Assembly: GCA_027532775.1 (NCBI GenBank)
Contig: JAPZTO010000001.1
Coordinates: forward strand, 806,001 to 870,000
Source of the DNA: Beijerinckiaceae bacterium
Lineage (GTDB): Bacteria > Pseudomonadota > Alphaproteobacteria > Rhizobiales > Beijerinckiaceae
Direction: 5' to 3'
Length of the DNA: 64,000 nucleotides
Part shown: piece by piece, positions 23,851-27,629 of the stretch
Position numbering within the stretch: position 1 is the stretch's first letter
Layout of the letters: each line of letters opens with the position of its first letter
Translations under genes and position numbers: made by a program
Notes under the pieces: model-generated
Database searches by the model: none
The model's input: the letters and a program-made list of their open reading frames with translations, nothing else
Told to the model about the DNA's origin: nothing

Positions 23851-23879
23851 CTTGTGGGGGCAAAAGGCGGTTCCTATAT
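23851..23879 (+). promoter_or_regulatory. Predicted RpoH (sigma-32) promoter of dnaK
   Basis: CTTG at 23851-23854 and CCTATAT at 23873-23879, separated by 18 bases, match the alphaproteobacterial heat-shock promoter form (CTTG then C-Y-TAT). The start codon of dnaK is about 130 bases downstream, so the leader is long. No CIRCE repeat is seen here. Inference from sequence only. Confidence 0.6.
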
Positions 23880-24006: not shown

Positions 24007-25917
<1,911 letters not shown>

Positions 25918-25933
25918 TCGGAGCGCGGGGGTG

Positions 25934-26458
25934 ATGTTCGACCTGGCTCAAAGGTGGCTCGGCAAGTCTGCCGGGCTACTTCTTGCTGGAGCCTTGTTGG
26001 CGGCAACTCCCGCAGGTGCGCAAACTCGGTTGAGTGAAAGGGATCAGGTGGCCTATTTGAAGGCTTTGGAACTCGAAAATTCCATCGCCGAGTTCTTGGC
26101 AAACCCCGATGTAGATTGGTTCGATTCGAAGTCGCAACGAATTGATCAGATTGTTGATGAGTTGGCAGATCGCATGAAGGTCATCGCCAAGACTCCGGAT
26201 GCCCTACTCAAGCTTTCACCCTGTGACTTTGCGAGGAATGCCATCGAAATTGTTGTTATCATGGCCCGGAGCGAATTTTGGACCTCCCGCGATCCTGTGC
26301 GCGCGAGAAATGCTCTCGCCGGCAATGGTCTGACCATGTATGCGGAATCAATGCGGCAGTGCGAATTGCTGGCAGGTATTCACAAGCGAGCACATGAATC
26401 TCCCGTTATTGGCAAACATTTGCGGTGCCTCGAAACGGGCGTGGATTGCGACAAATGA
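25934..26458 (+). CDS. Unknown exported protein between dnaK and dnaJ
   Basis: 174 residues, not recognised. A signal peptide is clear (FDLAQRWLGKSAG, then LLLAGALLAATPAGA, cleavage near AGA-QT), so it should be periplasmic. The mature part is acidic and helical, with four cysteines (SPCDF, RQCEL, LRCLE, VDCDK) that could form disulfides. Base composition drops to roughly 52% GC by hand count over 420 bases, against mid-60s in the flanking genes, with codons such as TTG, GAA and ATT that neighbours avoid. It lies 16 bases after dnaK and 28 before dnaJ, on the same strand. ATG 25934 is preceded by GGGGGTG. No function is proposed. Confidence 0.75.
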   Translation: MFDLAQRWLGKSAGLLLAGALLAATPAGAQTRLSERDQVAYLKALELENSIAEFLANPDVDWFDSKSQRIDQIVDELADRMKVIAKTPDALLKLSPCDFARNAIEIVVIMARSEFWTSRDPVRARNALAGNGLTMYAESMRQCELLAGIHKRAHESPVIGKHLRCLETGVDCDK

Positions 26459-26486
26459 ACACTCACCCGCTTGAAGGCGTGAATTG

Positions 26487-27629
26487 ATGGCCAAGCGTGA
26501 CTATTACGAGGTTCTGGGCGTTCCGAAAAATGCGGATGACGCCGCGCTGAAAAGCGCCTTCCGCAAGCTGGCGATGCAGTTTCACCCGGACAAGAACCCG
26601 GGGGATGCCGAGGCCGAACGCAAGTTCAAGGAACTGAACGAGGCCTATCAGGTCTTGTCGGATCCGCAGAAGCGCGGCGCCTATGACCGGTTCGGCCATC
26701 AGGCCTTCGAGGGCGGCGGCGGCCCGGGCGGGCCCGGCGGCTTCGGGCCGGATTTCGCGTCATCGATGAGCGATATCTTCGAGGACATCTTCGGCGATGT
26801 GTTCGGCGGCGGTGGCCGGCGGAGCGGCGGGCGCGGCCGCGAGCGCGGCGCCGACCTGCGCTACAATCTCGAGATCACGCTGGAAGAGGCCTACAAGGGC
26901 AAGAACGCGAATGTGAAGGTGCCGACAGCGATCAGCTGCGAGGCCTGCTCCGGTACCGGCGCGAAGCCGGGCTCCAAGCCCAAGGCCTGCGGCACTTGCG
27001 GCGGCGCGGGCCGTGTCCGGGCCACGCAGGGCTTCTTCTCGATCGAGCGCACCTGCCCGACCTGCGGCGGGCGCGGCGAGGTGATCGAGGATCCCTGCCG
27101 CAATTGCGGCGGTGCGGGCCGCGTGACACGGGAGCGGACGCTGTCGGTCAATGTCCCGGCCGGCGTGGAAGACGGCACGCGGATCCGCCTTGCCGGCGAG
27201 GGCGAGGCCGGAATGCGGGGCGCGCCATCGGGCGATCTTTATATTTTCCTGTCGGTGAAACCACATGGTTTCTACAGCCGCGACGGTGCCGATCTCTTCT
27301 GCCGGGTGCCGATCTCCATGGTGGCGGCAGCCTTGGGGACCGAAGTCGCGGTGCCGACACTGGATGGCAGCGAGGCGCGGATCCGCATCCCCGAGGGCAC
27401 GCAGTCCGGCAAGCAATTCCGCCTTCGGAACAAGGGGATGCCGATCCTGCGTTCGAAGGAGATGGGCGATCTCTATGTGCAGGCTGTCGTGGAAACCCCG
27501 CAGAACCTGACGAAGCGGCAGCGTGAATTGCTGGCCGAATTCGAGAACGCCTCCTCGAAGGAAACCAGCCCCGAATCCGCCGGGTTTTTCGCCCGCGTGA
27601 AGGATTTCTTCGGCGGCACGCCGAACTGA
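26487..27629 (+). CDS. dnaJ: Molecular chaperone DnaJ
   Basis: Type I Hsp40 of 380 residues that stimulates DnaK. The J-domain shows the HPD tripeptide in FHPDKN; a Gly-rich linker ([14 protein letters not shown]) is followed by four CxxCxGxG zinc motifs ([32 protein letters not shown]) and C-terminal beta domains. Start ATG 26487 gives [10 protein letters not shown]; the preceding TTG at 26484 is not needed. It is the third gene after dnaK, being separated from it by an unrelated-looking gene. Confidence 0.97.

What the first reader, a model, noticed from the sequence alone, without database searches (positions are those of the whole stretch)
25934..26458. A lower-GC unknown secreted gene wedged between dnaK and dnaJ
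dnaK and dnaJ are usually adjacent. Here a 174-residue signal-peptide protein with four cysteines sits in the same direction with short spacers (16 and 28 bases). Hand-counted GC over 420 bases is about 52%, well below the neighbours, and codon choice differs. It could be a horizontally acquired gene using the heat-shock transcript, or a lineage-specific periplasmic stress factor. This is the best candidate for something undescribed in the window.
Basis: partly seen in the sequence, partly recalled or inferred. Interest (0 to 1): 0.72.

Follow-up and report, generated by a model that had tools for sequence, protein, structure and literature searches.

The report
Immunity-like secreted gene within dnaK-dnaJ
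A small, probably exported protein of an undescribed four-cysteine family has been slotted between this bacterium's dnaK and dnaJ heat-shock genes; its relatives on Rhizobium plasmids sit behind bacterial-toxin genes in rows of antitoxin ('immunity') genes, so it may protect the cell against neighbours' toxins, though that function is inferred, not shown.

Summary
The ORF is real: 174 aa, signal peptide (by eye), four cysteines, 52.9% GC, 16- and 28-nt spacers. It matches no Pfam, NCBIfam or PHROG family over a cut-off. It is not unique: diverged homologues (25-34% identity, same four cysteines) lie in the same place in 3 of 16 congeners, in gaps of about 63% GC. Twelve congeners, including the four closest, have only 78-146 nt there. 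Two homologues lie elsewhere in other genera. All 7 Rhizobium plasmid records with a match have it downstream of a CdiA-type gene; annotated immunity genes lie in the same stretch in 5 of 7. No two-partner-secretion domain or T6SS sheath was found in the window genome. Best reading: a horizontally acquired, exported orphan immunity-type protein in a heat-shock operon (0.45). That it belongs to an undescribed, patchy, fast-diverging family is firmer. Other genera carry other cargo in the junction, including nucleotidyltransferase/HepT pairs in 3 of 37 genomes read, one of them chosen for its long gap.

The parts
25934..26458 (+). ORF, 174-aa probably exported four-cysteine protein (P0001)
   Evidence: family alignments and shuffle tests
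25934..26020 (+). signal peptide (residues 1-29, inferred by eye)
   Evidence: sequence; no predictor was run
25918..25933 (+). 16-nt spacer after the dnaK stop, with GGAG as possible ribosome-binding site
25952..25981 (+). stem-loop just downstream of dnaK, inside the signal-peptide codons; local stem-loops lie in the dnaK-dnaJ gap of congeners too
   Evidence: z -3.1 for a 41-nt stretch chosen around it, z -1.7 for 78 nt; z from 0.0 to -6.4 across 17 genomes
26464..26486 (+). 23-nt flank before dnaJ, shared with G005, a non-sister congener that also carries an insert
24007..25917 (+). dnaK
   Evidence: PF00012 1e-280
26487..27629 (+). dnaJ
   Evidence: PF01556, PF00226, PF00684
23851..23879 (+). 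RpoH-like site (CTTG-N18-CCTATAT) upstream of dnaK
   Evidence: pattern in 17 of 17 genus genomes; consensus recalled, no background rate computed

Best explanation
The gene encodes an exported, probably all-helical, four-cysteine protein of an undescribed family that works as an orphan immunity (antitoxin) protein. It was acquired horizontally, without a toxin gene, and sits behind dnaK, where it would be read from the conserved heat-shock promoter. In the periplasm it would bind and block a toxin delivered by a neighbouring bacterium (CDI- or T6SS-like). Shown: the gene, the homologous family, its patchy presence, and the place of its plasmid relatives behind CdiA-type genes. Inferred: export, co-transcription, toxin binding and protection.
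For: Homology: a profile of five relatives gives P0001's mature part 21.8 bits; the best of 20000 shuffles reached 13.0, and the best of a second set of 2000 reached 13.4. Adding two Rhizobium members raises it to 26.2 (best of 10000 shuffles 10.3). Context: tblastn with the G261 relative finds 6 plasmid records, and with P0002 or the G008 relative 7, all Rhizobium. I read all seven: in 7 of 7 the match lies downstream of a 'hemagglutinin' CdiA-type gene, and in 5 of 7 the stretch holds annotated immunity genes (CPCC, MafI, barstar, Imm42 or Imm63); in WSM2304 and CB782 the small neighbours are 'hypothetical', one of CB782's looking MafI-like by eye. The two CdiA C-termini scanned carry CdiA_C_tRNase and PT-HINT domains. 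Five plasmid copies are broken or partial, as expendable array genes may be. Carriers G000, G004, G008 and G014 show no TPS domain (PF05860) and no VipB (PF05943); the three congeners with one of them (G016; G009, G010) lack the gene. Precedent: orphan immunity arrays, and an orphan CdiI in a genome otherwise devoid of cdi genes (PMC9086364, passages). Divergence is fast: dN/dS 0.61 for G004 against G008.
Against: The window copy has no toxin partner. The seven plasmid loci are from related Rhizobium, in two neighbourhoods, so they are few independent events. The G261 and G125 copies show no toxin locus that I recognised by reading the ORFs within about 10 kb (no family scan). CDI toxins are described as acting in the target cytosol, whereas this protein looks exported. 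The hhalign comparison of P0001 with three congeners is only lukewarm (probability 55.9%, E 1.1e-4). No fold match (best PDB E 1.3). PF05860 rang in 0 of 14 control genomes, so that control says little; Rhs and other delivery systems were not searched.
Confidence: 0.45

Rival explanations
1. A periplasmic stress factor (chaperone-like or redox-linked) that works with the heat-shock operon it sits in.
For: RpoH-like site upstream of dnaK in 17 of 17 genomes; exported by eye, helical in the model, four cysteines; four genus genomes carry the family in this slot.
Against: Absent from the junction of 12 of 16 congeners including the four closest, and a further one (G005) has another ORF there; relatives elsewhere are not seen near chaperone genes; in other genera the junction takes unrelated genes.
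Confidence: 0.15
2. An accessory or passenger of CDI loci (secretion helper, effector or uncharacterised cargo) rather than an immunity protein, later moved into the dnaK-dnaJ slot.
For: Same plasmid context; it looks exported, unlike the annotated immunity genes beside it, which show no signal peptide by eye.
Against: Broken or partial in five of seven plasmid records although the CdiA-type gene is annotated there, as expected of an expendable array gene; no TPS domain in the carriers.
Confidence: 0.2
3. An ancestral genus gene at this place, inherited vertically, evolving very fast and lost many times.
For: Same slot and orientation in four genomes at three places of the dnaK-dnaJ tree; fast divergence of G004/G008.
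Against: The window copy is no closer to its congeners' copies (25-34%) than a Rhizobium plasmid copy is to them (27-31%), while the flanking genes are 81-84% identical in DNA to those congeners; plasmid relatives exist.
Confidence: 0.12
4. A decaying or non-functional insertion without any present role.
For: Low GC and GC3; broken plasmid copies; AT-rich, unmatched ORF in the same slot of G005.
Against: Full-length ORF with intact signal peptide, all four cysteines and a plausible ribosome-binding site; dN/dS below 1 for G004/G008.
Confidence: 0.08

Closest known systems
Unnamed hypothetical proteins of Rhizobium leguminosarum plasmids (WP_012555139.1 and AHG49780.1)
   Same: Signal peptide by eye, 173-181 aa, four cysteines in the same pattern; same family by profile.
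   Different: Plasmid-borne, behind CdiA-type genes; the window copy is on a 1-Mb contig, alone between dnaK and dnaJ, and 23% identical to WP_012555139.1.
CdiI-type orphan immunity genes of CDI loci
   Same: Small, fast-diverging, patchy, present without the toxin; plasmid relatives sit in immunity arrays.
   Different: Looks exported; no cognate toxin identified; no match to a known immunity family.
OmdA / YdeI 'bacteriocin-protection' (PF13376) and nucleotidyltransferase/HepT genes found in the same dnaK-dnaJ slot of other genera
   Same: Occupy the same junction in relatives.
   Different: Different Pfam families; nucleotidyltransferase/HepT is a toxin-antitoxin type pair (recalled).

Membership tests
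CDI immunity protein (CdiI) | encoded directly downstream of a cdiA toxin gene | tested here: not met
   The window copy lies between dnaK and dnaJ, and no TPS domain was found in the genome. Plasmid relatives do lie downstream of a CdiA-type gene (7 of 7), but in none as the first annotated gene behind it.
CDI immunity protein (CdiI) | neutralises a cognate CdiA-CT | not testable with these tools
   Needs a binding or protection assay.
Known immunity families (Imm, MafI, barstar, CPCC and others) in Pfam/NCBIfam | profile match over the curated cut-off | tested here: not met
   None of 8 members over a Pfam cut-off; each of six families listed at E<=1 is matched by a single member, best E 0.0084 (P0001 to GHL13, 15.6 bits, cut-off 27). 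NCBIfam: P0001 best E 0.18, P0002 and P0003 none.
DnaK/DnaJ chaperone system component | J domain, GrpE or HSP70 domain | tested here: not met
   Pfam scan of P0001 shows none.
Four-cysteine exported family defined here | signal peptide, C-x2-A and (Y/F)A-x5-CE motifs, C-terminal C-x5-6-C | tested here: met
   Alignments. The G125 member lacks the last two cysteines; the signal peptide is by eye.
PADLOC anti-phage defence families | profile match | tested here: not met
   of 8 members one matches, at E 0.079 only.

The most novel reading that the evidence does not exclude
The dnaK-dnaJ junction of this bacterial family is a recurrent docking slot where small conflict genes (exported immunity-type proteins, nucleotidyltransferase/HepT pairs, bacteriocin-protection-like genes) are captured and put behind the heat-shock promoter and the dnaK gene, so that defence against neighbours is expressed together with proteostasis.
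Probability: 0.25. Interest if true: 0.7.

Novelty: new variant of a known kind. Interest (0 to 1): 0.52.

Why it matters
If right, it names an undescribed family of exported immunity-type proteins and gives a concrete route (plasmid CdiA arrays) to the toxin it blocks. It also shows that a conserved gene pair, dnaK-dnaJ, is repeatedly opened for cargo genes in this bacterial family, which could couple stress response and inter-bacterial defence.

Tried and rejected
Searches with P0001 alone were uninformative: none in plasmids or phages at E<=1; in genome contigs 64 and in viral contigs 2 stretches matched a pattern, none a relative; 1 of 61 relatives at E<=1e-3, the window itself. At E<=1, 81 of 298 family genomes had a match, G000 included; the next best were 3.2e-4 (G109) and 9.8e-4 (G161), short stretches I did not follow. 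With the 4-row profile 9 of 17 genus genomes matched at E<=1; beyond the four dnaK-dnaJ copies the best was G002 at 0.005, dropped as chance. Also dropped: G069 (0.0088, two stops inside) and G058 (7.3e-4, 46 positions). Wider samples with A7 found only the window genome: 1 of 397 in the order, 1 of 270 in the class. Where the first look gave more candidates, only 8 to 13 per genome were scored, so members may be missed. The G261 relative has no phage match; P0002 and the G008 relative have none in viral contigs.

G005's AT-rich 141-aa ORF in the same slot: not detectably homologous to P0001 (399 of the 7380 reported shuffles score as well). A resemblance to a small gene of the Rhizobium arrays, spotted by eye, was not significant (119 of 20000 shuffles reach it). 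No plasmid match. It remains a lead.

Structure: two AlphaFold jobs on two-row alignments (best mean pLDDT 70.8 and 55.3; the other four models of the first job 40-48). The better model is helical with no Foldseek match at E<=0.001 in PDB or BFVD. An A7 profile against PDB sequences gave weak hits, mostly influenza hemagglutinin HA2 chains (E 0.58 and up), taken as chance.

Literature: seven searches on dnaK-dnaJ intergenic regions, HepT with dnaK, orphan immunity and rhizobial CDI listed no title on this gene or slot; I saw listings only, except passages of PMC9086364.

Full report
What is there. The ORF at 25934-26458 (+) is as described: 174 aa, ATG start, an exported-protein N-terminus read by eye (MFDLAQRWLGKSAGLLLAGALLAATPAGA|QT), four cysteines, spacers of 16 and 28 nt to dnaK and dnaJ. 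Its GC is 52.9% and GC3 56.3%, against GC3 of 88.4% and 82.9% in dnaK and dnaJ; among 45 script-picked ORFs of the window it has the lowest GC. P0001 has no Pfam match over a cut-off (best E 0.0084), none in PHROGs, a best NCBIfam E of 0.18 and a best PDB sequence E of 0.87.

It belongs to a family in the same slot. I compared dnaK-dnaJ of the window with the 17 genomes held for its genus and read the 16 other junctions. Twelve of 16 have a 78-146 nt gap, among them the four closest genomes (G002, G012, G013, G015; 90-94% DNA identity in dnaK/dnaJ). Three (G004, G008, G014) carry, in the same orientation and place, a secreted-looking protein of 166-190 aa, depending on the start chosen, with the same four cysteines; the GC of their whole gaps is 63-64%. 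G005 carries a different, AT-rich ORF. One genome is named indirectly: G008's contig has the length of JADCBP010000005.1, titled Methylobacterium sp. MAG. The genus of the window was not established.

Homology is real though distant. P0001 is 25-34% identical to the three congeners' proteins. A profile of five relatives scores its mature part at 21.8 bits, against at most 13.0 in 20000 shuffles and 13.4 in a second set of 2000. With two Rhizobium relatives added it rises to 26.2, against at most 10.3 in 10000. hhalign against the three congeners alone is lukewarm (probability 55.9%, E 1.1e-4). The shared core is C-x2-A..I, (Y/F)A-x5-CE, and a C-terminal C..C pair that the G125 member lacks.

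Elsewhere. A 4-row profile matched 7 of 298 family genomes at E<=0.01: four dnaK-dnaJ copies, G261 at 2e-19, G125 at 4.6e-12, and G069 at 0.0088 with two stops inside, which I dropped. G261's copy follows a gene that reads like a solute-binding protein, beside a run of small hypothetical ORFs; G125's lies among ordinary-looking chromosomal genes (read by eye, no family scan). Order and class samples gave no confident further member. So the family is rare in these samples, or the scan misses diverged members.

The functional lead. tblastn with the G261 protein hits 6 plasmid records; with the plasmid protein P0002, and with the G008 protein, 7; all are Rhizobium. I read all seven. In 7 of 7 the match lies downstream of a gene annotated 'hemagglutinin' or 'hemagglutinin repeat-containing' (CdiA-type). 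Annotated immunity genes (CPCC, MafI, barstar, Imm42, Imm63) are in the stretch in 5 of 7; in WSM2304 and CB782 the small neighbours are 'hypothetical'. The two CdiA-type C-termini scanned carry CdiA_C_tRNase (WSM2304) and PT-HINT (TP16) domains. Full-length copies are in WSM2304 and CB782; the other five match in two pieces or in part. The loci fall into two neighbourhoods (a DUF1349-ABC-RidA operon in four, an acetamidase-ABC operon in three), so they are few independent events. A review describes orphan immunity genes downstream of cdi loci and an orphan CdiI in a genome otherwise devoid of cdi genes (PMC9086364, passages).

The carriers show no weapon of these two kinds. Of 17 genus genomes, the TPS domain is found only in G016 and VipB only in G009 and G010; none of these three has the dnaK-dnaJ gene, and none of the four carriers has either domain. 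The TPS control rang in 0 of 14 genomes, so it gives no positive control; Rhs and other systems were not searched. With such numbers this is suggestive only.

How it got there. On a dnaK+dnaJ tree, some nodes of which are weakly supported, the carriers fall in three places, and G011 inside the G004/G008 group lacks the gene. In each of 20 blocks of about 100 nt on both sides, the window's best match (91-99%) is one of the four closest genomes, so the exchange seems confined to the spacer. A 23-nt stretch before dnaJ is found in loci of the window genome and of G005 only, out of 129 loci held, not all of which hold a junction; G000 and G005 are not sisters. This fits spread of insert alleles between lineages. 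dN/dS for G004 against G008 is 0.61.

Expression. An RpoH-like site lies upstream of dnaK in 17 of 17 genomes (consensus recalled, no background rate). In the window a stem-loop lies inside the signal-peptide codons (25952-25981): z -3.1 for a 41-nt stretch chosen around it, -1.7 for 78 nt. Across the 17 genomes the z of the best local stem-loop after dnaK ranges from 0.0 (G002) to -6.4 (G005), so it is clear in some and not in others. Co-transcription is inferred.

A wider slot. I read 38 junction regions from other genera of the family; 37 gave a dnaK-dnaJ pair, with gaps of 112-1194 nt, 7 of them over 600 nt. The sample is not random: most come from the top of the list, and G213 was included because its gap was already seen to be long. 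Ten inserted ORFs from seven genomes were scanned: nucleotidyltransferase plus HepT pairs in three genomes (G213 one of them), a nucleotidyltransferase alone in one, OmdA 'bacteriocin-protection' in one (two more of the same genus look alike by eye), a carbonic anhydrase in one, and one ORF without a match. The slot takes varied cargo, part of it conflict-related; no enrichment test was done.

Structure. The best model of P0001 is helical (mean pLDDT 70.8, pTM 0.63; the four other models 40-48) and has no significant PDB or viral match. A second job on the G008 relative was poorer (55.3).

Verdict. Firm: a real, exported-looking member of an undescribed, patchy, fast-diverging family at the dnaK-dnaJ junction, most simply gained by horizontal transfer. 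Moderate (0.45): an orphan immunity-type protein. Not shown: export, toxin, protection, heat induction.

Noticed in passing
L085, L094, L119 (dnaK-dnaJ gaps of G213, G033, G035): Nucleotidyltransferase + HepT-like pairs (toxin-antitoxin type) sit between dnaK and dnaJ in three other genera; L114 (G065) has the nucleotidyltransferase alone.
   Followed up: partly
L086, L097, L124 (G177, G227, G158, one genus): Short OmdA/YdeI 'bacteriocin-protection' ORF between dnaK and dnaJ (L124 by Pfam, the other two by eye).
   Followed up: partly
L050 3395-3901 (G005 dnaK-dnaJ gap): AT-rich (42.6% GC) 141-aa ORF without library match; shares the 23-nt stretch before dnaJ with the window; a likeness to a small gene of Rhizobium CdiA arrays is not significant.
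   Followed up: partly
L112, L103, L118, L123: Other ORFs between dnaK and dnaJ: a 259-aa membrane-like protein, a secreted-looking 236-aa protein, a 118-aa unknown, a carbonic anhydrase (the last two scanned).
   Followed up: no
L081-L084, L130-L132: Rhizobium CdiA-type loci with several unannotated small genes in their arrays, for example L084 7339-7680 directly behind the CdiA-type gene, found in 8 Rhizobium plasmid records.
   Followed up: partly
window 23851-23879: RpoH-like site upstream of dnaK in 17 of 17 genus genomes.
   Followed up: yes
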